64,000 nucleotides of DNA from positions 62,001 through 126,000 of the forward strand of contig NZ_VUYQ01000008.1 of assembly GCF_008711155.1 (NCBI RefSeq). The letters are read 5' to 3'. Positions 5,645 through 59,024 of the stretch are shown here, piece after piece. The position numbers and the translations under genes were made by a program. The stretch comes from Dechloromonas sp. CZR5 (GTDB taxonomy: Bacteria; Pseudomonadota; Gammaproteobacteria; Burkholderiales; Rhodocyclaceae). Every line of letters begins with the position of its first letter. The first letter of the stretch is position 1. A model generated the notes under the pieces. The model ran no database searches. It had not been told where the DNA came from and saw only the letters and a program-made list of their open reading frames with translations.

Positions 5645-5654
5645 GGCGGGCTCC

Positions 5655-6754: not shown

Positions 6755-6765
6755 GACGTTTCCTT

Positions 6766-34893: not shown

Positions 34894-36174
34894 ATGGGAA
34901 CCCAGATCAACGTACTCGACGACATCCAGATAAAGCACTGGGTCAACAAAGGCGCACCAATTGCCCGTTCCGATGGGGGTGGCCTGACTTTCACCCTGTC
35001 CGAGGCGGGAACCGCTACGTGGATACTCCGCTACCGGATGGGAGCCGGCCGCCGCAAGGAACTGACCCTTGGCAATTACCCCGACTTGTCGCTCGCCAAA
35101 GCCCGCCAGATGGCGAGAGAACACAGAGTATCAATCGACAAGGGAGAGGATCCCGCCGCCAAGAAAAAAGTCGAGAAGATGCAGTCCAAGATGGCCTGGA
35201 CCGTCCGCGCATTGATCGACGACTACAAGCAGAAGAAACTGGTGACGCCCAGCCTCGCTGAAGGGACCATCTATTACCGAAAGTGGGATCTGGAAAAAGT
35301 CATACTGCCCAAGCTCGGGTCGCTGGAAGTTCGGCACATCACGCCAGCCAAGATCGTTCACGTGCTTGAGTCGGCAAAGCGTTCCTGGACGATTTCGAAG
35401 CGAATTCTGACTTCGTGCAAGCTGCTTTTTGCCCATGCGTGTGGAAAGCGCTTGATTGACTCCAACCCGGCCGCTGGAATCGACCTGATTGCCCTCATGG
35501 GAGAACGCCCACCGATTCGCAAGCGCGTGATGCTGAACGAAGAGGAGTTGCGGACCCTACTGGCCGACATCGACGATATCGGTGTGGAAAACGCCTTGGC
35601 CTTCCGGATTCTGCTCGCCACCTGCGTGAGGTCCGTCGAACTGGCGAAAGCCCGGTGGGAGCACATCGATTTTGATCAAGCAACCTGGTGGGTTCCAGAC
35701 GATTCAGTGAAGACCCGGAAGGGCTTCCTGGTTCCGCTCACGCCAACAGTCGCAAACTGGTTCAAGGACCTGCGTGATCTCGCAGGGGAATCACCATGGG
35801 TACTACCAGCGAGGATCGAGCGTCGGCGTCGGCGGCTTGGAGATACCCACGTCGGCGAGACCACCTTGTGGGCCGCTATTTCACGTGCATTCGAGCGCGG
35901 TGACATCCAGATCCGAAAGTTCACGCCTCACGACACCCGTAGCACGGCAAAGGGACACATGCGCAACATGGGCATATCCCGAGAGATTTCCGAACTGGCC
36001 CTGAATCACACGTTGAAGGGCATGGAAGCGATCTACGATGTCCGTGAAGAGATTCCAGAACGTCGGGAAGCCCTGGAACGCTGGGCAAGCTTCATCACGG
36101 CGTGCGAAAGCGGACGGCCATGGAAGCCGGGCCCGCTTCGGCAGATTGCCAGCTTCGCCAACGTGAGGCACTGA
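34894..36174 (+). CDS. P4-type tyrosine integrase (DUF4102 N-terminus)
   Basis: This 426-aa site-specific recombinase catalyses integration and excision of the island. The N-terminal arm-binding domain (GGGLTFTLSEAGTATWILRYRMGAGRRKELTLGNYPDLSLAKARQ) is the DUF4102 pattern of P4-like integrases. The SAM-like core-binding domain follows. The catalytic domain has Arg in CVRSVELAKARW, HxxR in HDTRSTAKGHM, a His in NHTLKG and the Tyr nucleophile in AIYDVREE. All are intact. RBS GGGAG. It is directed into the island, with repeats on its upstream side. Confidence 0.93.
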   Translation: MGTQINVLDDIQIKHWVNKGAPIARSDGGGLTFTLSEAGTATWILRYRMGAGRRKELTLGNYPDLSLAKARQMAREHRVSIDKGEDPAAKKKVEKMQSKMAWTVRALIDDYKQKKLVTPSLAEGTIYYRKWDLEKVILPKLGSLEVRHITPAKIVHVLESAKRSWTISKRILTSCKLLFAHACGKRLIDSNPAAGIDLIALMGERPPIRKRVMLNEEELRTLLADIDDIGVENALAFRILLATCVRSVELAKARWEHIDFDQATWWVPDDSVKTRKGFLVPLTPTVANWFKDLRDLAGESPWVLPARIERRRRRLGDTHVGETTLWAAISRAFERGDIQIRKFTPHDTRSTAKGHMRNMGISREISELALNHTLKGMEAIYDVREEIPERREALERWASFITACESGRPWKPGPLRQIASFANVRH

Positions 36175-45647: not shown

Positions 45648-45934
45648 GCGGAGGGCTCCTGAACGGTTGAACGAGGCATGCCGAGGGGCATGTCCATGAG
45701 TCCAGAATCTCATCCCAACCCCGCCCTTCAAGCCTCCGGGCGTCGCCGTCAGAAGTGATGCGCGAACACGGATGGCACAGCCAATGTAAGTCGAATGGCA
45801 TTGTCCTCGATCCATCGGCTCGCCCTTATCGTGCCTGATCTCGAAACGGTGCCGCCAAAGCGGCCGTTCCTGCTGGGCGCCCCAGCCACCGACCACTACG
45901 CTGAGGCCCTCTTCCGCACCCCGCACAGGCCTTC

Positions 45935-46615
45935 ATGCATTCCAATTCCCAGCGGCGACATCGGCGCTCGGCCGTCATACAGCGCATCGCGGGTCTGGAG
46001 CGGGCGCTGGAACAGGCGCAGCACCTGCTTCACCAGGACGATCTCACTCCGCTCCTGAACCGTCGCGGATTCCGGCGCGCCTGCGACCGGTGGGTGGGCA
46101 ACGGCCCGATGGCCATGTCGGCCTCCTGCGCGATGATCGACCTGGATGGTTTCAAGGCCATCAACGACCGGCACGGCCATCCGGTCGGCGACGCCGCGTT
46201 GGTTCACTTCGCCGCCACGCTGCGCCGGCATCTCCGCCCCGCCGACACCATCGCGCGGCTGGGCGGCGACGAGTTCGCCCTGATCCTGATGAATTGCAGC
46301 GGCGACGATGCGTGCCTGCTGCTGGAACGCCTGCAGCAGGCACTCGCCGGATCACCCTTGGCAGTGCCGGGTGGCGCGGTGCCGTTGCGGTTCTCTGCCG
46401 GGGTCGCCGAGCTTCGCGCGGCTGAATCGCTGGAGCAGGTTTTGGAGCGCGCCGATACCGCCTTGCTCGATGCGAAGCAACTGGGCAAGGCGATGGTCCG
46501 CCTGAGCGTTCCACCGGCGCGGTCTGCGCAGGCGGCCGCGGCGAACGCGTGCGACCGACAGACCGCTTCAGCGTGCGTTCCCATCGCCATCGATGAACGG
46601 GAAAGCGACGGGTAG
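45935..46615 (+). CDS. Island-borne diguanylate cyclase (GGDEF)
   Basis: 226 aa soluble protein. A short coiled segment (RIAGLERALEQAQHLL) is followed by a full GGDEF domain: LTPLLNRRGFRRACD, MIDLDGFKAINDRHGHPVGD, RLGGDEFAL intact, and RPAD five residues before GGDEF (inhibitory I-site). It should make cyclic-di-GMP. Ribosome binding is weak (AGGCC). The tail after about residue 185 is Ala/Arg-rich. A cyclase on a mobile element may steer the host toward surface attachment or modulate transfer; that is inference. Confidence 0.85.
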   Translation: MHSNSQRRHRRSAVIQRIAGLERALEQAQHLLHQDDLTPLLNRRGFRRACDRWVGNGPMAMSASCAMIDLDGFKAINDRHGHPVGDAALVHFAATLRRHLRPADTIARLGGDEFALILMNCSGDDACLLLERLQQALAGSPLAVPGGAVPLRFSAGVAELRAAESLEQVLERADTALLDAKQLGKAMVRLSVPPARSAQAAAANACDRQTASACVPIAIDERESDG

Positions 46616-46888: not shown

Positions 46889-47108
46889 ATTCTTGTCGTG
46901 GCAGCGTTCGATGGCTGCCTCTGGTTCCGCGCACCACGCTGAACTGAGCCCTGCGCCGGCCGACACTTGTCGGTTGGTTTCCAAGCCCTTGGCGCTCGCC
47001 ACCTCGTACCCGATATGCCGGCCGGCTTCGCTATGAAGTCCGGCGCAGTCGCGTACGTCTGGCCTTTGCCAACCGGTCGTCCACGACCGTTTTCTTGCCC
47101 ATCCCACC

Positions 47109-47168
47109 CGGGGAGCCCGCCTCCCCGATGGGGCGTTGTGTTCCCCGTTTTCCTTGGAGAACACACCG
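47109..47168 (+). promoter_or_regulatory. Structured 5' leader L1 with sequestered Shine-Dalgarno
   Basis: Hairpin 1 is CGGGGAG-cccgc-CTCCCCG (47109-47127). Hairpin 2 pairs GTGTTCCC (47138-47145) with GGAGAACAC (47156-47164, one bulged A), burying GGAG just before the ATG. Same layout as L2-L5. Confidence 0.65.
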
Positions 47169-50100
47169 ATGGCCCGTCCTACCGCGCCTTCCCTGTGGCT
47201 GCCCGGGTTCGACCCGGCGGCCCCGACCCTGCCCCGCCCTGTAGAGCAGGTTTGCCTTTCCGTTTCTTGCGAGCCCGCCAAGCCTGTCGAGGTCATCCAC
47301 GTCGAGAACCTCAGCGACGTAGAGCAAGAGCAGTTTGTAGCCTCCGTCCGCGCCAACTGGCGGGTGGTGGCCACCGCGAACGAGGCCGCCCCCCGCATCA
47401 TCTGGCCACGGCTGACCCGCGCCGACCTGGAGCACCTGACCGGCCCGACCGTCAAGTTCGAGGCCAACCTGGCAGCGATCACGCTCCTGCGGCAGATCGA
47501 AGCCGAAGGCCGGCCGGCCAGTACGGATGATCGCCAGGTTCTTCAGCGCTACACCGGCTGGGGCGGCCTGCCCGCCAGCTTCAATCTCGAAGCCGCAGAC
47601 AGCGCCTGGGCCGAACGTGCCCGTCGCTTGCAGGCAATGCTCAGTGCCGAGGACTACGAATCGGCGCGCGCGTCCGTCAACAACAGCCACTACACCGAGG
47701 TCTGCGTGATCGAGGCGATATGGCAGGCGGTGGAGCGCTTCGGCTTCACCGGCGGGCGCATCCTGGAACCCGCCGCCGGCATCGGCCATTTCATCGGCGC
47801 CATGCCGCGGAATCTGGCCGAGCGCAGCAGCATCACCGCCGTCGACATCGACCGGGTCTCGGGCCGCATCCTCAAGGCGCTCTACGCGCCCGGCGGCGTG
47901 GACGTGCGGATTTCCCCGTTCGAGAAAACCCCGCTGCCCGACCACTGGTTCGACCTGGTGATTGGCAACGTCCCCTTCGGCAAGTACAAGGTCGCCGACG
48001 TGAGCAACCGGGCCTATGCCCGTTTCAGCATCCACAACTACTTCTTCGGCCGCGCCCTCGACCTGGTGCGCCCCGGTGGGCTGGTGTGCTTCATCACCAG
48101 CAGCCACACCCTGGATGCCCAGTACGACGCGGTGCGCGAGTACATCGCAAGTCAGGCGCACTTGCTGGGTGCCATCCGGCTCCCCAAGGGCACCTTCGCC
48201 GGTATCGCCTCGACCGAAGTGCAGACCGACATCCTGTTCCTGCGCAAGCGGCAGCGGGCCGAGGCGGTCGAGGCCAAATGGTTGAAACTGGGCACGGTGC
48301 CCGATAGTCTCCGGCACCCCCAGTGCTACGAGCGCTACCTGCCGATCAACGCCTGGTACGCCGAGCACCCGCAGTTCTGCATTGGCCGCATCCGCCGCGA
48401 GAGCAATGGCTACGAGGAAGTACCGGTCGCCGTGTTCGAGGGCGACCTGGAGGCGGCCCTGGCCGAGCGCATCGCCTTGCTGCCGGCCGGTGCTTACCGG
48501 CCGGTGGCGCACAAGGCCGCCCCGCTGCGAGTGGTGGTCCCGGCCGAGGCCGGTGCCCGTCCTGGCAGCTACCGTCTCCACCAGGGGCGGGTGCATCGGG
48601 TCGAGGGCAGCGAGATGGTCGACGTCCATGACCAGCTCAATGCCACGCAGCGGGCCCGCGTCACCGGCCTGTGTGCTATCCGCGACCACGCCCGGGCCCT
48701 GCTCGATGCGCAGTTGGCGGATGCGGGCGACGGTCGGCTGGGGCACCTGCGAGCCATGCTCAATGGAACCTACGAGCGCTTTATCTCGCGCTATGGCTGC
48801 CTGTCCACGCGCGCCAATGCGCTCGCATTCCGGCGTGACCCGGACTATCCGCTGTTGCTGTCGCTGGAGCATTACGACGAAGAGGCCGACACGGCCCGCA
48901 AGGCTGCGCTATTCACCCGGCGCACGCTGACCCGGGTCGTCGAACCGAGCACCGCGGGCGAGCCGGCCGAAGCGCTGGCCGCGTCCATCCAATGGCGTGG
49001 CCGGGTCGATCCGGCTTACATGGCCGAACTGCTTGGGGCACCCGAAGCGGCGGTGCTGGAAGCACTGGCCGGAGCGGGGCAGGTTTTCCGTGACCCGGCT
49101 GACGGGGAATGGAAGACCACCGACGACTACCTGTCAGGCAACGTGAAAGCGAAGCTCAAGCAGGCGGTGCTATCCGGGAGTACCTACCAGCGCAACATCG
49201 AGGCGCTGGAACAGGTGCAACCGGAAGACCTGCCACCGGCAGCCATCGAGCCGCGCCTGGGAGCGGTGTGGATTCCGGCCCTCGACGTCGAGGCGTTCAT
49301 CCAGCAGGTCCTGGAACTCAAGGACTGCCAGGTGGGCTACTCGGCCGAAGCCGGCGCCTGGTCGGTGAAGTACGGCGAGTGGGAAGCACGGCAGAACGTG
49401 AAGGTGACCCAGGAATTCGGCACCTCACGCATGAACGCGATCGAACTCGTGCAGTGTGCGCTCAATGTGCAGGTGCCGACCGTGCGCGACCGCGATCCGC
49501 TGACCGACAAGTACTTCGTCAATCCCGACGAGACGCTGGCGGCGCGGGAGAAGCTGGGCCTCATCAAGGAGCGGTTCGCCGTCTGGGCCTTCGAAGATAC
49601 GGAACGCCGCGAGAAGCTGTGCAGGATCTACAACGACCTGTTCAACGCCACGCGGCCCAGGCGCTTCGATGGCTCGCACCTGAAGCTGCCGGGATTCTCC
49701 CGCTGCTTCGTGCTGCATCCGCACCAGTTGGATTCGGTGTGGCGCATCGTGCAATCCGGCAACACCGGGCTGTTTCATGTGGTCGGTGCGGGTAAGACGG
49801 CGGTATGCGTCATCGCCAGCATGGAGTTGCGGCGGCTGGGCTTCGTCAACAAGCCCTGCCATGTGGTCCCCAACCACATGCTGGCGCAGTACACGGCGGA
49901 ATTCGTCCGCCTCTATCCGAACGCGTCGGTGCTGATGGCGAGCAAGGAGGACCTGGAAGGCGACCGCCGGCGCGAGGTGGTGTCGCGCATCGCCACGGGC
50001 GATTGGGACGCGGTGGTCATCACGCACTCGAGCTTCGAGCGCATCAGGATGTCGCCGCGATTCAGCGAGCGATTCATCAAGGAGATCATTCATGAAATAG

Positions 50101-52178
50101 AGATGGCGGTACGCGCCGAGAAGAGCAACGACCGGTCCAACCGGATCGTCAAGCAACTCGAGGCGATGAAGAAGAACTGGGCGGTGCGGCTGGAAAAGCT
50201 GTCGGCCGACCAGAAAAAGGACGACCTGCTCAGCTGGGAACTGCTGGGCATCGACGCCCTGTTCATCGATGAAGCCCACCTGCACAAGAACCTCTACCGG
50301 TTCACCAAGATGACGCGGGTGGCCGGCCTGCCGCTGACCAGTTCGGAGCGCGCCTTCGATTTGTTCCTGAAGACGCGCTACACGATGCAGATCCATGGGC
50401 ATGCGCAGCGCGGCGTAGTGTTTTCGACGGCGACGCCGGTGGCCAACACCATGGCCGAGATCCACACCATGATGCGCTATCTGCAGCCCAACCGGCTGGA
50501 GGAACTCGGGCTGCAGCAGTTCGATGCCTGGGCCGCCACCTTCGGCGAGAGCGTCACGGCGCTGGAGATCGCGCCGGACGGCAGTGGCTATCGCATGCAT
50601 ACGCGCTTCGCCCGGTTCATCAACGTGCCCGAGCTGATGGCGGTGTTCGGCGAAGTGGCCGACATCCGCACGGCGGAGATGCTGGACCTGCCGGTGCCGA
50701 AGCTGCGCGGCGGCAAGCCGCGCATCGTCGCCTGCCCGGCGAGCCCATCGCTGAAAGCCTTCGTGCAGACGCTGGTCCAGCGGGCGGAAGCCATCCGCAA
50801 CGGCGACGTCAAGCCGAACGAAGACAACATGCTGGCGATCACCACCGACGGTCGCAAGGCCGCGCTGGATTTCCGGCTGGTGGCGCCGCTGGCGGGATTC
50901 GACGAAAGCGGCAAGGTCTCGGCCTGCGTGCGGGAGGTTCACGCCATCTGGCAACGCACGACGGACTTCCGCGGCACCCAGTTGGTGTTCTGCGACTTGT
51001 CGTCCCCCAAGGACGGCAAGAGCTTCAGTGTCTATGACGACCTGCGGGACCGGCTCATTGGTGCGGGCATCCCCGAGAAGGAGATCGCCTTCGTCCATGA
51101 TGCCGAGACCGATGTCCAGAAGGCGACGCTGTTCAAGGCGGTGCGCGAGGGCCGGGTCCGGGTGTTGCTGGGCTCCACCGCCAAGATGGGGGTGGGGACC
51201 AATGTGCAGACGCGCCTCACGGCCCTGCATCACCTCGATGCGCCCTGGCGTCCCTGTGACGTCGAGCAGCGCGAGGGGCGCATCCTGCGCCAGGGCAATG
51301 AGTGTGAGGAAGTGGAAGTCTTCCGGTATGTCACGGAAGGCAGTTTTGACAGTTACATGTGGCAAACGCTGGAGACCAAGGCGCGCTTCATCGCTCAGGT
51401 GATGAAGGGCGACCAGGGCATCCGGTCGCTGGAGGATGTGGAATTGGCGGCGCTGTCCTATGCCGAGGTGAAGGCCTTGGCCTCGGGCAATCCGCTGGTG
51501 ATCGAGAAAGCCGGCGTGGACGCGGAGGTGGCCAAGCTCTCGACGCTGTTCTCGGTGTGGCGCAACCAGCGCTATGCCAACGAAAGCGAAGTGGGCCGGC
51601 TGCCGATGATGATCGAGGCGCTGGAGAAGAAGGTCGCACTTTACGCAGAGGATGCGGCCCGGATCGAGCCGCAGACCCTACAGGGCATCGCCATGGAATT
51701 GGCGGGGCGCAGGATCGTCGGCCCCGATGCGGTCGGCGAGGCGCTACGCGGGTTGGTGAGGACAGCCAAGGAAGAGGTCCGCACGGCCAGCCGGATGATC
51801 GAACGGATCGTCGGCCGGTTCGGCGGCTTCGAGCTCGGCATCCTCGGGGCCCGGGGCGACGAGACGCCCAGCCTGTACCTGGCGGGACACTGCCTGTACA
51901 ACGCCGAAACCTATCAAACAGGGCCGGCCCTGGTGGCCGCCCTGCTGGGTGCGCTGGAATCGGTGGGCAAGTATTACGCCGATGCCGAGATCCAGTTGGA
52001 AACTCGCCGCAAACGGCTGGAAGACCTGCGGCTGGAACTGGCCCGATCTTTCGAGCATGAAGGCCGGCTGACCGACCTGCTGGTCCGGCAACGCGAGTTG
52101 CTCAAGCAACTCGACCTGGACAAGGATGAAGCGGGTAGCGCGAAGGTCGACGCCGACGAGGCACGACAAGCCGCTTGA
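47169..52178 (+). CDS. Giant N6-methylase-like/SNF2 helicase fusion (1669 aa)
   Basis: 1669 aa. N-terminal methylase-like part: YTGWGGLPASF near residue 128, SAM motif ILEPAAGIGHFIG near residue 200 and catalytic-type VIGNVPFGKY near residue 265 (NVPF in place of the usual NPPF/NPPY). A SNF2/DEAD-like helicase follows: Walker A VGAGKT near 870, FIDEAHLHK (DEAH) near 1033, STATP near 1085 and QREGRILRQGN (motif VI) near 1366. The C-terminus is helical. Similar proteins on phages and ICEs (DarB-like) are thought to protect or process incoming DNA. RBS GGAG sits within leader L1. All helicase motifs look intact; methylase activity is uncertain because of NVPF. Confidence 0.85.
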   Translation: MARPTAPSLWLPGFDPAAPTLPRPVEQVCLSVSCEPAKPVEVIHVENLSDVEQEQFVASVRANWRVVATANEAAPRIIWPRLTRADLEHLTGPTVKFEANLAAITLLRQIEAEGRPASTDDRQVLQRYTGWGGLPASFNLEAADSAWAERARRLQAMLSAEDYESARASVNNSHYTEVCVIEAIWQAVERFGFTGGRILEPAAGIGHFIGAMPRNLAERSSITAVDIDRVSGRILKALYAPGGVDVRISPFEKTPLPDHWFDLVIGNVPFGKYKVADVSNRAYARFSIHNYFFGRALDLVRPGGLVCFITSSHTLDAQYDAVREYIASQAHLLGAIRLPKGTFAGIASTEVQTDILFLRKRQRAEAVEAKWLKLGTVPDSLRHPQCYERYLPINAWYAEHPQFCIGRIRRESNGYEEVPVAVFEGDLEAALAERIALLPAGAYRPVAHKAAPLRVVVPAEAGARPGSYRLHQGRVHRVEGSEMVDVHDQLNATQRARVTGLCAIRDHARALLDAQLADAGDGRLGHLRAMLNGTYERFISRYGCLSTRANALAFRRDPDYPLLLSLEHYDEEADTARKAALFTRRTLTRVVEPSTAGEPAEALAASIQWRGRVDPAYMAELLGAPEAAVLEALAGAGQVFRDPADGEWKTTDDYLSGNVKAKLKQAVLSGSTYQRNIEALEQVQPEDLPPAAIEPRLGAVWIPALDVEAFIQQVLELKDCQVGYSAEAGAWSVKYGEWEARQNVKVTQEFGTSRMNAIELVQCALNVQVPTVRDRDPLTDKYFVNPDETLAAREKLGLIKERFAVWAFEDTERREKLCRIYNDLFNATRPRRFDGSHLKLPGFSRCFVLHPHQLDSVWRIVQSGNTGLFHVVGAGKTAVCVIASMELRRLGFVNKPCHVVPNHMLAQYTAEFVRLYPNASVLMASKEDLEGDRRREVVSRIATGDWDAVVITHSSFERIRMSPRFSERFIKEIIHEIEMAVRAEKSNDRSNRIVKQLEAMKKNWAVRLEKLSADQKKDDLLSWELLGIDALFIDEAHLHKNLYRFTKMTRVAGLPLTSSERAFDLFLKTRYTMQIHGHAQRGVVFSTATPVANTMAEIHTMMRYLQPNRLEELGLQQFDAWAATFGESVTALEIAPDGSGYRMHTRFARFINVPELMAVFGEVADIRTAEMLDLPVPKLRGGKPRIVACPASPSLKAFVQTLVQRAEAIRNGDVKPNEDNMLAITTDGRKAALDFRLVAPLAGFDESGKVSACVREVHAIWQRTTDFRGTQLVFCDLSSPKDGKSFSVYDDLRDRLIGAGIPEKEIAFVHDAETDVQKATLFKAVREGRVRVLLGSTAKMGVGTNVQTRLTALHHLDAPWRPCDVEQREGRILRQGNECEEVEVFRYVTEGSFDSYMWQTLETKARFIAQVMKGDQGIRSLEDVELAALSYAEVKALASGNPLVIEKAGVDAEVAKLSTLFSVWRNQRYANESEVGRLPMMIEALEKKVALYAEDAARIEPQTLQGIAMELAGRRIVGPDAVGEALRGLVRTAKEEVRTASRMIERIVGRFGGFELGILGARGDETPSLYLAGHCLYNAETYQTGPALVAALLGALESVGKYYADAEIQLETRRKRLEDLRLELARSFEHEGRLTDLLVRQRELLKQLDLDKDEAGSAKVDADEARQAA

Positions 52179-52213
52179 GTTGATTTCATCCCCATGCTCG
52201 AAAGCAGAAAACG

Positions 52214-52247
52214 AGGGCCTCCACCAAAAATGGAGGCCCTTTGTTTT
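52214..52247 (+). terminator. Bidirectional terminator between helicase and nhaD genes
   Basis: AGGGCCTCCA-ccaaaaa-TGGAGGCCCT is followed by TTGTTTT; in the other direction TCGTTTTC follows. It lies in the gap between two convergent genes. Confidence 0.85.
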
Positions 52248-52358
52248 CGGGCTGAGAGCGTTTCAGACCGACTCAAATAATGTGGCATCGCCTGCTTCGC
52301 GAGACCCATCGGTTCTGGTTCCGGATGCACACCATCGGCGTAGTTACTGAGCGCGGGA

Positions 52359-53633
52359 TTAACCCGACATCGCAAGATAAAGGACAGCCCCGGCCAGATA
52401 GCCCGTCAGGGCCAGCCCACTAATTTTTTGGACGTACCAGAAGAACCGGATCTTCTCCAGACCCATAGCTGCCACGCCAGCGGCGGAACCGATGATGAGT
52501 ATGGAGCCCCCGGTGCCCGCACAGTAGGCGAGAAACCCCCAGAGCAGGTGATCGGGGGGATAGTCCGTCAGGCTGTACATACCCATGGAAGCGGCCACCA
52601 GCGGTACGTTGTCGACTATGGCGCTGACGATGCCGATGACCAGCACGATCACGTCCACCCGGCCCACAGCCTGGTTCAGCCATTGGGCAAGACTGGCCAG
52701 GATGTGGGTGTGCTCCAGTACCGCCACCGAGAGCAGGATACCGACGAAGAAAACGAGGGAACTCATGTCGATCCGGCTCAAGGCGTGGGCCAGCGTCAAG
52801 GGCTGCTTGCGGCTCTCATCCTTTTCCCGATGTACCAGATCGCCCGCCATCCAGAGAATACCCAGGCCGAACAGCACCCCCGTGAAGGGCGGCAGATGGG
52901 TGATCGTCTTGAAGGCGGGGACGGCAATCAAAACGCCGAGCCCGAGAAAGAACATCAGCTTGCGCTCAAATTCGGTCGTGTCCTGGATTGGATCGTCGTT
53001 ATCCGGCTCGATGGCGTCAAAGCGGCGTCCCCGCAAGGTATGGGCCATCATTGCCAAAGGCACGATCAGGCTGACCAAGGAAGGCAGGAACACCGACTGG
53101 ATAGTGGCCAACACGCTTATCTGGCCGCCGATCCACAACATGGTGGTCGTCACGTCGCCGATGGGCGACCAAGCCCCGCCGGAATTGGCGGCGATGACGA
53201 TGATCCCGGCAAAGAGCAGCCGGTCTTCCTGCCGTGCCAGGATTTTGCGCATCAGGGAAATCATCACGATGGTGGTGGTCAGGTTGTCGAGGATGGTACT
53301 GAGGAAAAAGCTGATCCCGGCGACCATCCACATCAGCGAGGACAGCGTCGACGTACGGATGCGCCGGGTGATGACGTCGAACCCGTTGTGCGCGTCCACC
53401 AGTTCGACAATCGCCATGGCTCCCATCAGGAAGAAAACGATCTGGGCCGTGTCCGTCAACGACTCCCCCAGATGTTGGGCCACAAGATAGGGGTCGTTCT
53501 GCGACATGGCGTAAAGGGTCCACAGCAGTCCTGCCGCGACCAGGGCAGAGGCCGACTTGTTCACCTTGAGCGGGTGTTCAAGGGCGATGGCGGTATAGGC
53601 CAGAACAAAGATGACGATCATTGCAGTCAGCAT
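52359..53633 (-). CDS. nhaD: NhaD-type Na+/H+ antiporter
   Basis: 424 aa, about 12 TM helices. Family segments include FFLMGAMAIVELVDAHNGFD, ISFFLSTILDNLTTTIVMISLMRKIL, IVIAANSGGAWSPIGDVTTTMLWIGG, and IVSAIVDNVPLVAASMGMY. The buried Asp residues (LDNLTTT and VDNVPLV) are conserved in the NhaD ion pathway. It exports Na+ or Li+ in exchange for protons. The start at 53633 has AAGGAG upstream; the longer frame upstream is rejected. It is a single-gene cargo with its own unit, not linked to mobility functions. Confidence 0.93.
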   Translation of the reverse strand: MLTAMIVIFVLAYTAIALEHPLKVNKSASALVAAGLLWTLYAMSQNDPYLVAQHLGESLTDTAQIVFFLMGAMAIVELVDAHNGFDVITRRIRTSTLSSLMWMVAGISFFLSTILDNLTTTIVMISLMRKILARQEDRLLFAGIIVIAANSGGAWSPIGDVTTTMLWIGGQISVLATIQSVFLPSLVSLIVPLAMMAHTLRGRRFDAIEPDNDDPIQDTTEFERKLMFFLGLGVLIAVPAFKTITHLPPFTGVLFGLGILWMAGDLVHREKDESRKQPLTLAHALSRIDMSSLVFFVGILLSVAVLEHTHILASLAQWLNQAVGRVDVIVLVIGIVSAIVDNVPLVAASMGMYSLTDYPPDHLLWGFLAYCAGTGGSILIIGSAAGVAAMGLEKIRFFWYVQKISGLALTGYLAGAVLYLAMSG

Positions 53634-54248
53634 GTCACTGCTCCTTCGCAAGCGCGGTGGCTGCTGCGCGTCGACTGCACCCGGGTCGGCCATGGGGCGA
53701 GCGGACATCCCGCCTCCGGCGGCAAAGCTGAGGCGCTCCCGGCAAGTGCGGAAAGGTGCAATACCGGAAGAACAACCTTGCAGGCTGGCAGGACAGCGGC
53801 AAAGCAAAGGGGCAGCGAACGCGGCGGGTGGGCGCGATGAGCGGTCATGGGTCTACTCTGACAGACAGCGTGCGGCGGCCCGACCAGCACGAAAACCTGT
53901 CATCGACTCGCTATCGAAGCGCTGACACCCGAGCAAATTTTATCATCATATCCATCTGAATCACCCCGGCTCAATGCCGTTTACCGGCATCGTGCCAGTG
54001 ACAAACTAGATGAACCGCTTGTCGGTTCACTGGTAGCCGGTTCGCATCCGATGACCGGCGAGGCGCACTATAAGCACGACCCCCACTTCACCAAGACCCA
54101 CCAAATTCCCAACGCTTGCGTGTGGCAACCCTGCTTGCAGACTTGAGCCAAAGGTAAAACCAGCGCGATACTGCAAGGGCTTTCTGCGGACATCGCGTCT
54201 GCACAGCCTTCATCGGCGGCCTCGGTCGCCCTGAAGTCCAGCCCAGCT

Positions 54249-54270
54249 GGCGTCGCAGTCGTTACCTGCC
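54249..54270 (+). repeat. Shared 22-bp intergenic repeat, copy C
   Basis: Identical to copy A: GGCGTCGCAGTCGTTACC followed by TGCC. It lies 275 bp before the next plus-strand gene. Confidence 0.7.
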
Positions 54271-54482
54271 TCAAGGATACCCGGCGTCGATCGGGTCCGG
54301 CCACGTCCATGGCCGTGTGTCTTGTTCAGCCACCCGGCTGAATGTTGAGTACTGCCGCGCGACCTACGGGTCGATCGGCATCGAGCGAAGGCCCCGTTCG
54401 CAAGAACCGTGGGCCTTCATCCTGCACGTGCCGCCTGGCACGTCGCCGAGCCGCTCTGCCGTCCACGGCTGAGCATCCCGAA

Positions 54483-54544
54483 CGGGGAACCCCAAGTTCC
54501 TCCTCAGGGATGGGTGTTCCCTTTCATTCCTGAAGGAGAACACC
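54483..54544 (+). promoter_or_regulatory. Structured 5' leader L2 with sequestered Shine-Dalgarno
   Basis: Hairpin 1: GGAAC-cccaa-GTTCC. Hairpin 2: GGTGTTC (54513-54519) pairs with GAACACC (54538-54544), and the inner CCTT/AAGG extends the stem over the AAGGAG ribosome binding site. The ATG follows at once. Confidence 0.65.
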
Positions 54545-54721
54545 ATGTTCGCAATCCCTGTAACGAGAGAGTCGCGCCCGGTCGCCGTGCTGCTGGGAGG
54601 CTCCGGACATGCCCGGACGCCTGCTGTTCGCACGCCCGCCGTGCCGGCGTTGCTGAAGCTGCAGCCCAACGCCCCTTGGCGTTCCGGCTGCGCTTCCGAG
54701 TACCGCGCGTCAGGAGGCTGA
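54545..54721 (+). CDS. Small unknown ORF behind leader L2
   Basis: 58 aa, starting right after leader L2 (AAGGAG, 7 nt). The sequence is Ala/Pro/Arg-rich with no recognised motif. Its stop is 2 nt before the next ATG, suggesting coupling. It is either a real small protein or a translated leader peptide for the following gene. The conserved leader before it supports translation. Confidence 0.5.
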   Translation: MFAIPVTRESRPVAVLLGGSGHARTPAVRTPAVPALLKLQPNAPWRSGCASEYRASGG

Positions 54722-54723
54722 TC

Positions 54724-54948
54724 ATGCCGATCAGCCTCTACCGCCGGCGCATTGCCGCCACTGTGATCCAACTGGCCAAGGACGATCCGTCTCTGGTCAA
54801 GGAGGTGATCGCCCGCTTGCGAGAGTCGGGTGAGATCGAAGCCGACGATCTGGTTTACCTGGACCGGATCGCCGACCGCTGGATGAGGATTGCCGAGGAC
54901 AACGGCAGGCACGCCGCATCAACGTATCCGCGTCAAGCGCGCGGGTAG
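54724..54948 (+). CDS. Small unknown helical island protein
   Basis: 74 aa; AGGAGG 6 nt upstream, overlapping the preceding stop region. LYRRRIAATVIQLAKDDPSLVKEVIARLRESGEIEADDLVYLDRIADRWM looks all-helical. The pattern resembles small ICE proteins of unknown role. It overlaps the end of the convergent 76-aa gene by 30 bp. The good ribosome binding site and amphipathic pattern make it likely real. Confidence 0.6.
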   Translation: MPISLYRRRIAATVIQLAKDDPSLVKEVIARLRESGEIEADDLVYLDRIADRWMRIAEDNGRHAASTYPRQARG

Positions 54949-55149
54949 CGGGATGCCCCTGGCCTTCGCCATTGCCGCAGCGATCTTTTCCAGCAGATCG
55001 GGACGTTCATCGTTCAGCGTATCGGCCCATCGGGCCAATGCCTGGTCGATGTCGCCCTGTGTTCGCGCCCCGTCGAAGTCGAGACCGAGTTTTCGGTAGG
55101 CCTCGATTTCGTCGGGCGTGAACCGTAGTGCATTGCCTGCACGCAGCAT
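54919..55149 (-). CDS. Small unknown protein, paralogue of the 57187-57402 gene
   Basis: 76 aa. The N-terminal MLRAGNALRFTPDEIEAYRKLGLDF resembles MIRLGSQIRLTRREVERFRKITDIE of the minus-strand gene at 57187, and both continue with a helix (GDIDQALARW versus DDLDAYIARC). The shared start and spacing suggest divergent paralogues. AGAGGTG lies about 9 nt before the ATG. The function is unknown; size and charge would suit a DNA-binding or regulatory peptide. Confidence 0.55.
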   Translation of the reverse strand: MLRAGNALRFTPDEIEAYRKLGLDFDGARTQGDIDQALARWADTLNDERPDLLEKIAAAMAKARGIPLPARLTRIR

Positions 55150-55212
55150 GGTGTGGGCACCTCTTGACCTGTGAGCGTTCAGCTTAGCAGCGCCGCATGT
55201 CCGTGCAACCCC

Positions 55213-55277
55213 GGGGAGTCCACCGCCTCCCCGACCAGGGACAGGTGTTCCCTCTATTCGTCTTTGGAGAAAACATC
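55213..55277 (+). promoter_or_regulatory. Structured 5' leader L3 with sequestered Shine-Dalgarno
   Basis: Hairpin 1: GGGGAG-tccaccgc-CTCCCC (55213-55232). Hairpin 2: GGTGTT (55244-55249) pairs with AACATC (55272-55277) with one G-U pair, enclosing GGAGA before the ATG. Confidence 0.6.
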
Positions 55278-55793
55278 ATGTCCCTTGAGAAACCCCGTCC
55301 TCGCCCCCGGCGCTCCGGTATCGAGTCCGAGGAAGAGCGTGCCTGGGTCGGCTTCTACCAACGCGTCAGCCGTGATCCGGCCATCGCGACCGAAGTCATG
55401 ACCCAACTCGAGTCCGATCCCGAAATGAAGCGTACCCATCTGGCGTTGTTCCTGTGCTGCAAGGAATCCTTGCGCAGGCACAAGGCCCGCCAGGCGCGCA
55501 ACAAGCGGATCGGTCAGTTCGTCCGCTGGCTGTGCCACGGCCTGTTCGTCCGGCCGCTGCGCAGTCTGCAGAAGGGTCTGCGTCACGGCAGCGACATCGC
55601 CGTCGAATGCCTGCCCGAAGTGGTCAAGGAGCCGGCCGTGGCCCAAGTGCGCCGCCTGGCTCGGGAAACCGAGTTCACGACGGCACACACGGCCTTCGAG
55701 CAACAGGCGGCCCAGTCTGCGCCCGACCCGTTACCCGCATCCACTGAAGCCCAGGCCTCGCCCAGCGCAAAAACAACGCGCTCGGCCGCCTGA
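55278..55793 (+). CDS. Unknown island protein
   Basis: 171 aa behind leader L3. The first half is charged (RPRPRRSGIESEEERAWVGFYQRVSRDPAIATEVMTQLESDPEMKRTHLALFLCCKESLRRHKARQARNKRIG) and helical. The C-terminal part (from about 140) is Ala/Pro/Ser-rich and probably disordered. I recognise no domain. RBS GGAG. It lies in a string of small plus-strand genes on the island. Confidence 0.6.
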   Translation: MSLEKPRPRPRRSGIESEEERAWVGFYQRVSRDPAIATEVMTQLESDPEMKRTHLALFLCCKESLRRHKARQARNKRIGQFVRWLCHGLFVRPLRSLQKGLRHGSDIAVECLPEVVKEPAVAQVRRLARETEFTTAHTAFEQQAAQSAPDPLPASTEAQASPSAKTTRSAA

Positions 55794-56078
55794 CCCGAGA
55801 AGCGCCAGGCCATCACCGGCCCGGCCTGTGATGTGGCGGCACCAGCCGTTGCATCCGGATCGACGAACGCCCACGCCCGCTGCTCACCCAGCGGCGCGTG
55901 CGGTGCTCGCCCCGATCCCCGCACACCCCATCGAGTGCCCGTGAACGCCGGCAAGGCGACTTCACGGCGCGCCCACACCCGCCCGCTACGCCGTCTGCGC
56001 GCGTCGGGCCAAACCCCGCCCGCCGATCTGCTCCTGGCATGCCGGCCCCATTTTTCTAGCAATGAAAGGAAGCCTTTG

Positions 56079-56321
56079 ATGATCACTATCACCGCCATCC
56101 TGAACGCCATCGAAGCGCACGCTGAGCGCGCCATCGTCCCAGAGCTTCGCCTCATCAAGAAGGAGGTCGAGAAACTGCGCCCATCCCTCTACCCGGATGA
56201 CCAGGAGCACGCCGACGCCCTGCTGCTGAAGCTGGACCGCCTGCTGTCCGACCAGGTCGTCGTCGCCACCGAGGCCGGCGCCTTGGCGCAAGGATTCCAG
56301 GCAGTGGCGCAGGCGGCCTGA
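56079..56321 (+). CDS. Small unknown helical protein
   Basis: 80 aa: MITITAILNAIEAHAERAIVPELRLIKKEVEKLRPSLYPDDQEHADALLLKLDRLLSDQVVVATEAGALAQG is likely two helices with a coiled-coil flavour. AAAGGA is 8 nt upstream and can fold with CCTTT (AAAGGAAGCCTTT), another way the ribosome site may be masked. The upstream extension of the frame (from 55833) is not supported. The 285 bp before it shows no gene or clear signal. Confidence 0.55.
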   Translation: MITITAILNAIEAHAERAIVPELRLIKKEVEKLRPSLYPDDQEHADALLLKLDRLLSDQVVVATEAGALAQGFQAVAQAA

Positions 56322-56374
56322 GCCGCAGCGGCACCACCGGCCAGCTGACCTTCGGCCTGCCGGATAGGCAACAA

Positions 56375-56433
56375 CCCCGTGGGGCTCACGCCCGACGGGG
56401 TGGGGTTCCACGACATTTCGAAAGGAACCCGAG
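56375..56433 (+). promoter_or_regulatory. Structured 5' leader L4 with sequestered Shine-Dalgarno
   Basis: Hairpin 1: CCCCGT/ACGGGG. Hairpin 2: GGGTTCC (56403-56409) pairs perfectly with GGAACCC (56424-56430), burying AAAGGAA three bases before the ATG. The stem sequence differs from L1-L3 but pairing is kept. Confidence 0.65.
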
Positions 56434-57105
56434 ATGAACAAGGTGACTATCAATGCGGCACAGCAGCACTACGTGATCGATTGCGGCGAGGGCTATACCT
56501 GCCTCGGTTTCGCCAACGCCCGGGATCACGCCAACCAGATCGCCTGCAGGCTGCGCCGTGCCGACCTGGCGTTTACGGATGAGGACTACGCGACCCTCAC
56601 CGGCTACGAAAAGTACGGCCGAGCCGTCCAGGCCTGGGGCCAGTCCCCGCTGACACGCACGACCTACTTCGATCCCGGCACCGATGCCAAGGCCGGCAAG
56701 GTCCTGGAATCCTGCCGCACCCGCGAACGGAAGGTCCGCCTGATCCTGGGCGATGCGAGCACCGGCGAACCCTGGCTGGAGGAACACGATGTCGTCGGCC
56801 GGATCGGCCGCTCGGCGGGGAGTTTGAAGATCCCCTTGCTGATCGAGCCGGGTGAGCATGGCGGCTGCGCCATTCTGTGCGCCTGCCTCCTTGCCATCGT
56901 GGATTGGGAATCGGGCGACTTCCTGTATCGCCATGCCGCCTACCGCGAAGCCGACTTGAGCATCAAGCCTTCGGGCGACGCCGACCGGTCCTGGAACGTT
57001 CTGCGGCGCGAAGAAGTCGTCGCCAGTTTCCGGGACATCGGCAAGGCCGGCGCCTACCTCGCCTTCATGCGCGGCGCGACGATCGAGCCGCGTGTCTTCC
57101 AGTGA
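56434..57105 (+). CDS. Unknown island protein
   Basis: 223 aa behind leader L4. N-terminal MNKVTINAAQQHYVIDCGEGYTCLGFANARDHANQIACRLRRADLAFT, then GYEKYGRAVQAWG, RERKVRLILGDASTGEPWLEEHDVVGRIGRSAGSLKIPLLIE and a C-terminal AYLAFMRGATIEP. It is globular, apparently alpha/beta, with no family I recognise, though similar proteins are common on ICE-like elements. Good ribosome site and codon use. It is probably an accessory protein with an unknown role. Confidence 0.65.
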   Translation: MNKVTINAAQQHYVIDCGEGYTCLGFANARDHANQIACRLRRADLAFTDEDYATLTGYEKYGRAVQAWGQSPLTRTTYFDPGTDAKAGKVLESCRTRERKVRLILGDASTGEPWLEEHDVVGRIGRSAGSLKIPLLIEPGEHGGCAILCACLLAIVDWESGDFLYRHAAYREADLSIKPSGDADRSWNVLRREEVVASFRDIGKAGAYLAFMRGATIEPRVFQ

Positions 57106-57186
57106 CTTTGATGGCAGTACCCAATGGAGCGACGTCTCCCTGGCAGCAACGCTGGGGAGGCGGTCGCCCGCAGAAAACCAACCGTG

Positions 57187-57402
57187 CTATGCCGCCTGGC
57201 GGCACTGGGCGTATTCGCGGTCGATGAGCCAATGCAGGAACTGGGTGTCCTTGGAGACACCCCAGTAGTGCGCCTTGCATCGGGCGATGTAGGCGTCCAG
57301 GTCGTCGAGCGTGCGGATGTCCACCGGCTCGATGTCGGTGATCTTCCGGAAGCGCTCGACCTCCCGGCGAGTGAGTCGAATCTGCGAGCCGAGGCGGATC
57401 AT
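57187..57402 (-). CDS. Small unknown protein, paralogue of the 54919-55149 gene
   Basis: 71 aa: MIRLGSQIRLTRREVERFRKITDIEPVDIRTLDDLDAYIARCKAHYWGVSKDTQFLHWLIDREY. Its first 45 residues align with the minus-strand gene at 54919. Its ATG overlaps the stop of an upstream 61-aa frame by 4 nt (ATGA), hinting at coupling. No recognised family. Confidence 0.5.
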   Translation of the reverse strand: MIRLGSQIRLTRREVERFRKITDIEPVDIRTLDDLDAYIARCKAHYWGVSKDTQFLHWLIDREYAQCRQAA

Positions 57403-57584
57403 GGTCGTTCTACGTGAAGGGTTGAGTCTTCATCTTGATCAAATTTTTCAGGCTTGTCGCGGGTCTTACGGCGGTCACGCAAAAAATTTATGCAGTACCA
57501 ATAGGCTGACATCCAGGTCACACTGGAGTGCAAGTAGGCCCTTTTGACCAAGCTGGCGGCACCTCCGCCGAAAGCGATCGGCAC
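57399..57584 (-). CDS. Possible small ORF coupled to the 57187 gene
   Basis: 61 aa from a GTG. It overlaps the downstream start by ATGA, the main evidence for it. The sequence MPIAFGGGAASLVKRAYLHSSVTWMSAYWYCINFLRDRRKTRDKPEKF contains a weakly hydrophobic middle followed by a basic stretch. Composition is AT-rich compared with neighbours, and no strong ribosome site is present. It may be only a chance frame. Confidence 0.3.
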   Translation of the reverse strand: MPIAFGGGAASLVKRAYLHSSVTWMSAYWYCINFLRDRRKTRDKPEKFDQDEDSTLHVERP

Positions 57585-57700
57585 GCCCTCATCACCAACG
57601 CCATTCCCAAGCCCGTCGGATTCCGGCCGCTTGAACGTTGCGTCCTCCGCATCCCCTTGAATCTACCCTACTGATGCCGGAAACTGACCAAGCTTATATG

Positions 57701-57717
57701 CATTCCATCGTGGAATG
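57701..57717. promoter_or_regulatory. 17-bp operator-like dyad
   Basis: CATTCCA-tcg-TGGAATG is perfectly symmetric. It is 18 bp upstream of repeat D and about 160 bp before radC. The dyad itself was not seen at the other repeat copies. Confidence 0.45.
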
Positions 57718-57734
57718 TAGTCCGGCCCCGAGCC

Positions 57735-57756
57735 GGCGTCGCAGTCGATACCTGCC
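57735..57756 (+). repeat. Shared 22-bp intergenic repeat, copy D
   Basis: GGCGTCGCAGTCGATACC followed by TGCC; one difference from copies A and C. It lies 104 bp before radC. Confidence 0.7.
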
Positions 57757-57790
57757 TCATTCATCGTGCCGACCCAGGTCCGCACATTCA

Positions 57791-57860
57791 TCCCAAGCGG
57801 GGACCTTGTCCCGTTTGGGATTGGCGCTCCCGCTTTTCTTGTTTACTCGAGGAGAACGCC
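57791..57860 (+). promoter_or_regulatory. Structured 5' leader L5 with sequestered Shine-Dalgarno
   Basis: Hairpin 1: TCCCAA..CGGGGA/TCCCG..TTGGGA (57791-57820). Hairpin 2: GGCGCTCC (57823-57830) pairs with GGAG-aa-CGCC (57851-57860), burying the GGAG site right before the ATG. The outer GGCG/CGCC replaces the GGTG/CACC of L2. Confidence 0.65.
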
Positions 57861-58442
57861 ATGAATCTATCTGCCTTGTCCCGCGCCGATCTGGTCCGCG
57901 AATTACTCTCGCCCCTGGTTTGCGCGTCGAGTACCAACCCTTTGCACGTCAGCGATGCCGTGGCGCAAATGGGCATGCTCGGCACCACCGATACCGTTCT
58001 CGCCCATCGCCTGGGCATTGCCCGCGAACTGCTGCTGCGCGATCTGCATGCGCAGATGCGCAGCGGCCCGCTAATGACCTCGCCGCAAGTCCTGCGCGAT
58101 TGGCTGCGGCTGTATTGCGCTGGCCTTGAGCATGAGGTGTTCCTGGCGCTCTACCTGGACGCCCAGCATCGCCTGATCGAAGCCGAGGAGTTGTTCCGGG
58201 GAACCCTGACCCAAACGTCCGTCTATCCCCGGGAAGTGGTCAAGGGAGCGCTCGCCCGTAACGCCTCGGCGCTGGCCGTTGCGCACAACCATCCCTCGGG
58301 GGAAGTCGAGCCCTCGCGGGCCGATGAGCTGCTGACACAAAACCTGAAGCACGCGCTGAGCCTGGTGGATGTGCGGGTGATCGACCATTTCGTCGTCGCC
58401 GGCGACACCGTTGTGTCGTTTGCCGAACGCGGGCTGGTGTAA
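57861..58442 (+). CDS. radC: RadC-family JAB/MPN protein
   Basis: 193 aa. A helical N-terminal part (HhH-like) is followed by the JAMM metal site [15 protein letters not shown] (HxH...S...D), [20 protein letters not shown] and [19 protein letters not shown]. RadC/YeeS proteins are frequent on mobile elements. A DNA-repair role is doubtful; metallo-isopeptidase or DNA-transaction functions are proposed. It follows leader L5 and repeat D. It is the first gene of a tight plus-strand set ending at the terminator near 59,400. Confidence 0.9.
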
Positions 58443-58540: not shown

Positions 58541-58756
58541 ATGTCGACGAGAATCCCGCCTCATTGTCCTGTTTGCACGGGCGACGGCGTGCCGTTGGGT
58601 ACGCTGGGCCGCCTGCGCTGGTTCCGTTGTCGCGACTGCGGCATGAACTTCAGTCGTCAGACTGGCACGCGCCCCAAGACCAAGTCGACGTCGCATCAAG
58701 AGGAAGGAGAACCGCATGGAAACACCCGCTGTGGCAAGCTTGCAAGCGCAGGCTGA
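58541..58756 (+). CDS. Small zinc-ribbon protein
   Basis: 71 aa. Two CxxC pairs (HCPVCTGDG and FRCRDCGMNF), 25 residues apart, form a zinc ribbon as in transposase or transcription-type zinc fingers (RWFRCRDCGMNFSR resembles an IS1-type InsA-like finger). AGGAG upstream. The C-terminal 30 residues overlap the next gene's start by 41 nt. Likely a nucleic-acid-binding accessory protein. Confidence 0.65.
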   Translation: MSTRIPPHCPVCTGDGVPLGTLGRLRWFRCRDCGMNFSRQTGTRPKTKSTSHQEEGEPHGNTRCGKLASAG

Positions 58757-59024
58757 ACCCCTGGCCTCGTTATCGATCTCGCATCTGAGTTCAAGCACCC
58801 GCCTGAAACTGGCCGATGACGAATTGTCAGTCAACGCCTACCCGACCGACTGCGGCGGCCTCGTCTACGTCGGCGCACCCTGTTACAGGGTGCCAACGGA
58901 AGCCGACTTGGCTGTAATTTTCGAGGTCGCGGAGCAAGCCGGCATCGTCTGGCTGAAGTTCGATAGCGAGGCGGCCGTGATCGATGGGCTTCCAGTCTTC
59001 GATATGTCGGGGCCCGAAGCATGA
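58716..59024 (+). CDS. Unknown small protein (DUF5983-like)
   Basis: 102 aa; AAGGAG 6 nt before the ATG, overlapping the zinc-ribbon gene. SLSISHLSSSTRLKLADDELSVNAYPTDCGGLVYV then TEADLAVIFEVAEQAGIVWLKFDSEAAVIDGLPVFD resembles small ICE proteins of the DUF5983 kind, a weak match from memory. Its stop overlaps the next gene's start by 4 nt. Confidence 0.6.
   Translation: METPAVASLQAQAEPLASLSISHLSSSTRLKLADDELSVNAYPTDCGGLVYVGAPCYRVPTEADLAVIFEVAEQAGIVWLKFDSEAAVIDGLPVFDMSGPEA

What the first reader, a model, noticed from the sequence alone, without database searches (positions are those of the whole stretch)
47109..57860. Five unrelated island genes share a two-hairpin leader that sequesters the Shine-Dalgarno
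Seen: the genes at 47169, 54545, 55278, 56434 and 57861 (methylase-helicase, small ORF, unknown, unknown, RadC) each have a first hairpin, then a second stem containing the ribosome binding site, ending within 0-4 nt of the ATG. Stem 2 arms differ but stay paired: GTGTTC/GAACAC, GGTGTTC/GAACACC, GGTGTT/AACATC (one G-U), GGGTTCC/GGAACCC, GGCG/CGCC plus CTCC/GGAG. Compensatory change argues for a selected RNA structure. Inference: a common post-transcriptional switch (antisense RNA, protein, ribosomal protein or temperature) holds island genes silent until a signal such as transfer. I know of no named motif for this.
Basis: partly seen in the sequence, partly recalled or inferred. Interest (0 to 1): 0.85.

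Follow-up and report, generated by a model that had tools for sequence, protein, structure and literature searches.

The report
Two-state RNA leaders in conjugative islands
Genes of mobile DNA islands in many proteobacteria start with the same short two-hairpin RNA leader that hides the ribosome-binding site and has a built-in alternative fold, an apparently unnamed family of RNA switches that may control when islands make their transfer and upkeep proteins.

Summary
All five leaders fold as two hairpins with the Shine-Dalgarno (SD) in the second. A covariance model of related leaders ranks exactly these five as the top hits in the 64-kb window. The same leader sits at the start of 29 of 35 proteobacterial methylase-helicase orthologues examined. 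It also precedes RadC, ArdC-like, SSB, RecT, exonuclease VIII-like, PRTRC and ICE-replication genes, and 9 of 12 genes checked in pKLC102.

New here: in 130 held-out leaders the 5' strand of hairpin 1 pairs with its own hairpin-2 5' arm better than with other leaders' arms (-12.75 against -9.20 kcal/mol, 0 of 5000 permutations). So each leader seems to encode two exclusive folds. Cut before the SD arm, 100 of 126 prefer the alternative, against 37 with swapped hairpin 1. Full-length, 115 of 126 prefer the SD-hiding form.

No Rfam family matched these leaders above its cut-off. Rfam's radC RNA lies 9-31 nt upstream of the leader in 9 of 9 hits above cut-off. The trigger, and whether the alternative fold means "on" or "terminate", are untested.

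The parts
47102..47168 (+). Leader of the methylase-helicase gene (47169). Hairpin 1 47102-47133, hairpin 2 47134-47168 with the SD GGAG
   Evidence: fold; R2 hit 47103-47171, 50.0 bits; alternative helix CGGGGAGC/GTTCCCCG
54474..54544 (+). Leader of the 58-aa ORF (54545). Hairpin 1 54474-54512, hairpin 2 54513-54544
   Evidence: fold; R2 hit 54477-54547, 55.0 bits; the similar leader L030:7435 has alternative helix GGGGAAC/GTTCCCT
55198..55277 (+). Leader of the 171-aa unknown gene (55278). Hairpin 1 55198-55243, hairpin 2 55244-55277
   Evidence: folds; R2 hit 55209-55280, 29.5 bits, not in training; no clear alternative helix found by the scan
56374..56430 (+). Leader of the 223-aa unknown gene (56434). 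Hairpin 1 56374-56401, hairpin 2 56403-56430
   Evidence: fold; R2 hit at 56375, E 0.014, hairpin 2 misaligned; alternative helix CGTGGGGCTC/GGGTTCCACG
57790..57860 (+). Leader of radC (57861). Hairpin 1 57790-57821, hairpin 2 57823-57860
   Evidence: fold; R2 hit 57792-57863, 56.9 bits; alternative helix AAGCGGGG/TCCCGCTT
47169..52178 (+). Methylase-helicase (Eco57I-type methylase and helicase C domains), leader-bearing
   Evidence: Pfam PF07669 over cut-off, PF00271 just under it
54545..54721 (+). 58-aa ORF, unknown, leader-bearing; a homologue in L159 also has a leader
55278..55793 (+). 171-aa unknown protein, leader-bearing; homologues in L159 and (fragment) L142 also have leaders
56434..57105 (+). 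223-aa unknown protein, leader-bearing; homologue in L111 also has a leader
57861..58442 (+). RadC-like JAB-domain protein, leader-bearing
   Evidence: PF04002 E 1.5e-41; TIGR00608 over cut-off
34894..36174 (+). Tyrosine-type integrase; probable edge of the island (inferred)
   Evidence: PF00589, PF13356, PF22022

Best explanation
Each leader is a self-contained two-state mRNA switch at translation initiation. Strand 1 (hairpin-1 5' side and loop) pairs with strand 2 (hairpin-1 3' side). Strand 3 (hairpin-2 5' arm) pairs with strand 4, which carries the SD and runs to the start codon. In this state A the SD is hidden and translation is low.

Strand 1 is also complementary to strand 3. In state B strand 1 takes strand 3, hairpins 1 and 2 both open, and the SD arm is released. 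As RNA polymerase leaves the leader, B is predicted to form first and A to replace it once the last few bases of the SD arm are out.

Shown by comparative computation: the folds, the covariation, the leader-specific complementarity and the SD location. Inferred: that A means off, that B means more translation (possibly a short window on new transcripts), and that the trigger is general (transcription and folding kinetics, or ribosome traffic from the gene upstream) rather than a sequence-specific factor. The genes served that can be named are mainly DNA-handling and upkeep genes, so the switch probably limits them to particular moments such as entry or excision.
For: Structure: 12 of 16 pairs have changes on both sides. 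Cells paired: 92.4% (A7, 94 distinct rows) and 93.5% (A8, 136 distinct), against 81.8% and 82.4% in shuffles and 52-69% in slid controls. Cells changed on both sides: 137 and 217, against 42 and 62 in shuffles.

Alternative pairing: own against permuted duplex energy -13.21 vs -10.67 in 69 leaders, and -12.75 vs -9.20 in 130 held-out leaders. Permuting only within a locus gives -11.89 and -11.32. 0 of 5000 permutations reach the observed value in each of the four tests. Hairpin-1 loop 4-mers alone (56 leaders, best of three registers): 2.91 of 4 vs 2.48, 0 of 5000.

Order of folding: truncated after strand 3, state B is the MFE in 52 of 68 and 100 of 126 leaders (swapped hairpin 1: 30.4 and 37.0). 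Full length, hairpins 1+2 are the MFE in 62 of 68 and 115 of 126.

SD hiding: in four named records, annotated genes with a leader have median SD-unpaired probability 0.02 (n=23), without 0.26 (n=50), p 2.3e-4.

Position: 25 of the 26 plus-strand hits in six named plasmid records end exactly at an annotated CDS start.

Specificity: 106 R1 hits at E<0.01 in 839 kb of proteobacterial island loci (the training leaders included), against 1 in 864 kb of control loci.
Against: No experiment exists. At full length A is more stable than B by a median 8.0 and 6.2 kcal/mol, and forcing B raises the SD-unpaired probability only from 0.25 to 0.40 and 0.46; so B as a fully open state is not shown. B is followed by a U-rich stretch in many leaders, which fits a terminator at least as well. 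No trigger was found. For leader 55278 no clear alternative helix was found. In one fixed register the loop 4-mer test showed no signal across loci (own 1.27 of 4 against 1.37 permuted; within loci 1.19, reached by 351 of 5000). Seed leaders were chosen by structure, and CM alignments lean towards it. The permutation, slide and annotated-start controls are less exposed to that, but the slides still run on structure-fitted alignments.
Confidence: 0.58

Rival explanations
1. Transcription attenuator. The 1:3 helix followed by U-rich RNA is an intrinsic terminator just ahead of each gene; hairpin 1 is the antiterminator; hairpin 2 hides the SD in whatever escapes. Expression needs antitermination.
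For: State B is the predicted fold exactly when the RNA ends after strand 3. T in the 8 nt after strand 3 is 2.1-3.4 times that expected from GC in every GC class; at least 5 of 8 are T in 49 of 68 and 68 of 126 leaders. In AT-richer loci positions 2-5 are over 90% T.
Against: In loci of 62% GC or more only 6 of 14 and 2 of 28 have at least 5 T, and the pKLC102 leaders mostly lack a U-run. It leaves both states off. U-rich loops also serve to hide A-rich SD flanks.
Confidence: 0.22
2. Plain SD-sequestering hairpin relieved by the ribosome of the gene upstream (translational coupling) or by temperature; the 1:3 complementarity is a by-product of hairpin 1 resembling the SD arm.
For: Leaders often start 3-24 nt after the stop of an upstream ORF of 40 aa or more (16 of 48 leaders listed; recount). 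SD hiding is strong.
Against: 15 of the same 48 lie over 100 nt from such a stop, and some follow radC or STAXI RNAs. A by-product would not give own-versus-swapped specificity within loci.
Confidence: 0.12
3. Binding site for an island-coded or host RNA-binding protein or an antisense RNA that toggles the two folds.
For: A whole gene set shares the leader; G-run and C-run positions and GGAG are near-invariant.
Against: Loop and arm sequences differ widely among leaders of one element, so recognition would have to be of shape only; no common partner gene was looked for systematically or found.
Confidence: 0.06

Closest known systems
radC RNA (Rfam RF01754; table entry in PMC2864571)
   Same: Cis-regulatory RNA ahead of genes of mobile elements in Proteobacteria; overlapping gene set as I recall it (radC, methyltransferases, integrases, anti-restriction), not from a call
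   Different: 149-nt element with another sequence and fold (alignment) and no SD or start codon. The 9 hits above cut-off (L196, L203, L204, L205) end 9-31 nt before hairpin 1 of our leader. None near the window leaders at E<=10.
STAXI RNA (RF01728)
   Same: Beside single-strand-binding, anti-restriction and integrase genes (passage of PMC2864571); three hits lie in loci with our leader, 27 nt (L195), 61 nt (L206) and 409 nt (L192) upstream of one
   Different: Repeated pseudoknots, possibly acting as single-stranded DNA; different sequence and position
freshwater-2 RNA (RF02980)
   Same: Hairpins then SD and ATG; a 27.1-bit match over leader L035:9867
   Different: Below the gathering score (49.9); its SD lies in an unpaired tail
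erm-type translational attenuators and metastable mRNAs such as hok (recalled, no call)
   Same: Strands with exclusive pairings that hide or free an SD
   Different: Here strand 1 pairs with 2 or 3, not 2 with 3; no leader peptide identified (none was searched for systematically); many copies per element, each with its own sequence

Membership tests
radC RNA RF01754 | matches the RF01754 covariance model over the element | tested here: not met
   No RF01754 match on window leaders at E<=10; own-genome hits all under cut-off and none on the island contig C31; in other elements its hits lie upstream of our leader, not over it
radC RNA RF01754 | located ahead of radC and related mobile-element genes (gene set recalled) | tested here: met
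   Leaders precede RadC, ArdC-like, SSB, RecT and methylase-helicase genes
freshwater-2 RNA RF02980 | match above gathering score, SD in unpaired 3' tail | tested here: not met
   27.1 bits against 49.9; SD paired in our leaders
Intrinsic terminator / transcription attenuator | GC-rich hairpin directly followed by a U-run | tested here: inconclusive
   Met in most AT-rich hosts, less often in GC-rich ones
SD-sequestering translational switch | SD base-paired in the ground state | tested here: met
   Predicted SD-unpaired median 0.02 with leader against 0.26 without
SD-sequestering translational switch | conserved alternative fold that excludes the sequestering one | tested here: met
   Own-versus-swapped tests in 69 and 130 leaders
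SD-sequestering translational switch | change of translation on switching | not testable with these tools
   needs reporter or ribosome data
RNA thermometer (ROSE, fourU) | match to a known thermometer family; melting in the physiological range | tested here: inconclusive
   No Rfam thermometer match to the window leaders; melting not tested
erm-type translational attenuator | short leader peptide overlapping strand 1 | not tested
   no systematic search for leader peptides was made

The most novel reading that the evidence does not exclude
The leaders are RNA timers. A new transcript folds first into the 1:3 state with the SD exposed, is translated for a short time, then refolds into the SD-hiding state. 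Conjugative elements would use many individually tuned copies to give a brief burst of anti-restriction, recombination and partition proteins after entry and then silence them, with no dedicated regulator.
Probability: 0.2. Interest if true: 0.93.

Novelty: new variant of a known kind. Interest (0 to 1): 0.8.

Why it matters
If right, a large, apparently unnamed RNA family controls the DNA-handling genes of conjugative elements across beta- and gammaproteobacteria, including pKLC102. It would explain why so many island genes carry a hidden SD, give Rfam a new family, place the orphan radC and STAXI RNAs next to an expression platform, and offer a simple handle (about 65 nt, any reporter) for asking when these genes are on. 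The own-versus-swapped co-variation makes the two-state claim directly testable by strand exchange.

Tried and rejected
Rfam radC RNA as the identity: rejected, because it matches neighbouring sequence, not the leader; a sample of 185 class genomes gave no radC hit and its controls did not ring, so that search says nothing about absence. Freshwater-2, SAM-Chlorobi (other strand) and DUF2815 matches to L035: weak and below cut-off. Shared antisense RNA: judged unlikely on sequence diversity within elements. Terminator as sole function: not general. A first descriptor scan was too loose (1561 hits); I filtered it by rules to 168 and by eye and by dropping duplicate loci to 100, then clustered to 65. 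R1 was built from 19 leaders of that kind; R2 from R1's own 98 hits. DNA matches of four held-out stretches in plasmids or E. coli genomes: none. Literature: searches (listings and starts of abstracts) showed no paper describing the leader; only open-licence papers are held, so absence from print is not shown. A 4-mer loop test in one fixed register showed no signal across all loci (own 1.27 against 1.37); the signal appears when the best of three registers is allowed for own and swapped pairs alike. An energy table with automatic helix choice picked wrong helices in some leaders and was replaced.

Full report
OBSERVATION. The five leaders were read directly and folded. Each gives two hairpins, the second containing the SD and reaching to 0-3 nt before the start codon, with z-scores -2.75 to -5.07. 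For 55278 the stem extends past the start codon when coding bases are included. A scan of the window with Rfam 15 found only an nhaA-I RNA at 53871-53930 on the other strand above cut-off; even at E<=10 no family matched any of the five leaders.

RELATIVES. A search with the methylase-helicase protein found homologues in 13 of 300 genomes of the order, own genome included, which has a second, 80% identical copy. A scan of the named genome collection gave the best 80 of 575 related places with flanks, a capped list: Dechloromonas, Accumulibacter, Rubrivivax, Xenophilus, Luteimonas, Gallionella and others, plus Verrucomicrobia, Planctomycetes and Firmicutes. The same two-hairpin leader stands before many genes of the proteobacterial islands. 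One Gallionella contig (L080) has 14 hits of the later model R2 at E<0.01 on one strand within 17 kb. I built model R1 from 19 leaders. In 41 proteobacterial sources (839 kb, training leaders included) it has 106 hits at E<0.01. In 42 control sources (864 kb of non-proteobacterial helicase loci and other stretches of the own genome) it has one, in a stretch (L007) that may be another island. In the own genome its seven hits at E<=0.004 lie on contigs C31, C4 and C29; R2 adds one on C5.

COVARIATION. On the 98-row alignment A7, 12 of 16 pairs have changes on both sides, 137 cells against 41.7 in shuffles; cells paired 92.4% against 52-67% when the partner is slid. On A8 (150 rows from 59 loci not used for training) the figures are 12 of 16, 217 against 61.9, and 93.5% against 55-69%. 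Both alignments were fitted to the structure, so the slide and shuffle controls carry the weight.

ALL FIVE WINDOW LEADERS BELONG. Model R2 ranks exactly the five leaders first in the window; two of them, 55209 and 56375, were not in its training. I tallied 35 proteobacterial loci that hold the 5' part of the helicase gene (window plus 34 sources). In 27 an R2 hit at E<=0.5 ends on an in-frame start codon of it with no stop between; in two (L054, L069) the hit ends directly before the ATG; in six (L034, L038, L040, L043, L044, L088) there is none at the helicase start. Many of these loci were in R2's training, and near-identical copies count separately. In L033 the helicase is split into two ORFs and each half has its own leader.

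GENES. Leaders precede RadC, an ArdC N-terminal-domain protein, SSB, RecT, an exonuclease VIII-like nuclease, PRTRC ParB and PRTRC E, the methylase-helicase, and many unknown proteins. Of 130 held-out leader genes, 26 resemble one of the reference leader genes: RadC 11, ArdC 3, exonuclease 2, others 10; the other 104 do not.

NAMED ELEMENTS. In stretches of pKLC102, a Pseudomonas veronii plasmid, a Stutzerimonas plasmid, a Duffyella plasmid and two Sphaerotilaceae plasmids R2 gave 31 hits at E<=1. I examined the 26 on the plus strand (down to E 0.042); the five left out are minus-strand hits with E 0.059-0.46. Of the 26, 25 end exactly at an annotated CDS start. In pKLC102 9 of the 12 plus-strand CDS from 10900 to 18738 of L203 have one, including the STY4534-family ICE replication protein and a DEAD/DEAH helicase. 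The pil genes upstream in the same stretch have no hit. In the other records the shares are 6 of 9, 7 of 15, 1 of 11, 1 of 1 and 1 of 1 of the CDS that I listed. In the four larger records annotated genes with a leader have median SD-unpaired probability 0.02 (n=23), the others 0.26 (n=50), p 2.3e-4; genes without an SD-like word were left out.

DISTRIBUTION. At E<=1e-4 R2 rings in 40 of 399 genomes of the order (31 genera), 18 of 369 of the class sample and 11 of 299 of the phylum sample; G000 and G049 count in all three, G020 and G158 in two.

THE ALTERNATIVE FOLD. In many leaders the 5' strand and loop of hairpin 1 (for example CGGGGACAC) repeat the SD arm of hairpin 2 (GGAGACAC) and are complementary to its 5' arm (GUGUCCCC). 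In 69 non-redundant leaders the duplex of own strands averages -13.21 kcal/mol against -10.67 (sd 0.24) when strands are permuted, and -11.89 (sd 0.23) when permuted only within a locus; 0 of 5000 in each. Using only the four loop bases, which hairpin 1 does not constrain (56 leaders), own pairs score 2.91 of 4 against 2.48, and 2.69 within loci (0 of 5000), if the best of three registers is taken for own and swapped pairs alike. One fixed register gave no signal across all loci (1.27 against 1.37) and little within loci (1.19; 351 of 5000 as high). In 130 held-out leaders (two similar to training leaders dropped; 128 end in a start codon) own is -12.75 against -9.20 (sd 0.19), and -11.32 (sd 0.20) within loci, 0 of 5000 in each. 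R2 models only hairpins 1 and 2 as pairs, so this pairing was not selected for as pairing; its consensus letters could favour it, which the permutations control for.

ORDER OF FOLDING. The MFE of the leader cut after strand 3 is the alternative helix in 52 of 68 (training) and 100 of 126 (held-out) leaders; with hairpin 1 swapped between leaders it is 30.4 and 37.0 on average (maximum 35 and 44 in 20 permutations). Cut after the SD it is 42 of 68 and 90 of 126; at full length hairpins 1+2 win in 62 of 68 and 115 of 126. Forcing the alternative at full length costs a median 8.0 and 6.2 kcal/mol and raises SD-unpaired probability only from 0.25 to 0.40 and 0.46; so a fully open SD in state B is not shown.

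U-RICH STRETCH. The 8 nt after strand 3 hold 2.1-3.4 times the T expected from base composition in all GC classes, but at least five T in only 8 of 42 leaders from loci of 62% GC or more. A terminator is therefore plausible in AT-richer hosts and weaker in hosts like the window's.

RELATION TO KNOWN RNAS. Rfam radC RNA lies 9-31 nt upstream of our hairpin 1 in 9 of 9 hits above cut-off (one in L196, three in L203, two in L204, three in L205; one of these leaders is itself weak, L204:11574, E 0.042). A tenth match, below cut-off (27.6 bits), lies 8 nt upstream of a leader in L147. STAXI lies 61 nt upstream in L206, 27 nt in L195 and 409 nt in L192. The radC alignment shows a separate 149-nt fold without SD. 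PMC2864571 was seen by search passages only. The leader is thus a neighbour, not a member, of those families; many leaders have no such neighbour.

READING. The comparative evidence shows a selected, SD-hiding, two-state leader. That state A is off is the natural inference. Whether state B turns translation on, forms a terminator, or only times translation of new transcripts is open; I favour the first, with the timer as its boldest form. The diversity of leader sequences within one element argues against a common sequence-specific partner.

Noticed in passing
window 53871-53930 (-) and 52362-53705 (-): An nhaA-I RNA (43.8 bits) ahead of a CitMHS-type transporter gene lies inside the island, on the strand opposite the leaders.
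   Followed up: partly
window 43614-45926 (-), 45935-46615 (+), 58716-59024 (+), 59415-60035 (-): Island cargo: a 770-aa protein with a ParB N-terminal domain, a GGDEF diguanylate cyclase, a DUF5983 protein and a uracil-DNA-glycosylase-like protein.
   Followed up: partly
window 54919-55149 (-) and 57187-57402 (-): Two small ORFs on the opposite strand lie just upstream of the leaders of 55278 and 57861; no clear family.
   Followed up: partly
L033 (G020) 5289-7522: The methylase-helicase is split into two ORFs and a leader stands before each half.
   Followed up: partly
window about 54252 and 57735: A shared stretch (GGCGTCGCAGTCG, one variable base, then TACCTGCCTCA) lies upstream of two leaders; it could be a divergent upstream element like radC RNA, but Rfam finds nothing there.
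   Followed up: no
own genome C29 about 46635 (L129) and 50809 (L007): Two further leader hits suggest another island in the same genome; the second was seen only in the locus search.
   Followed up: no
L203 12558-12620 (pKLC102): A leader-like hit ends at a TTG inside a stretch annotated as a gene on the other strand; possibly an unannotated small gene.
   Followed up: no
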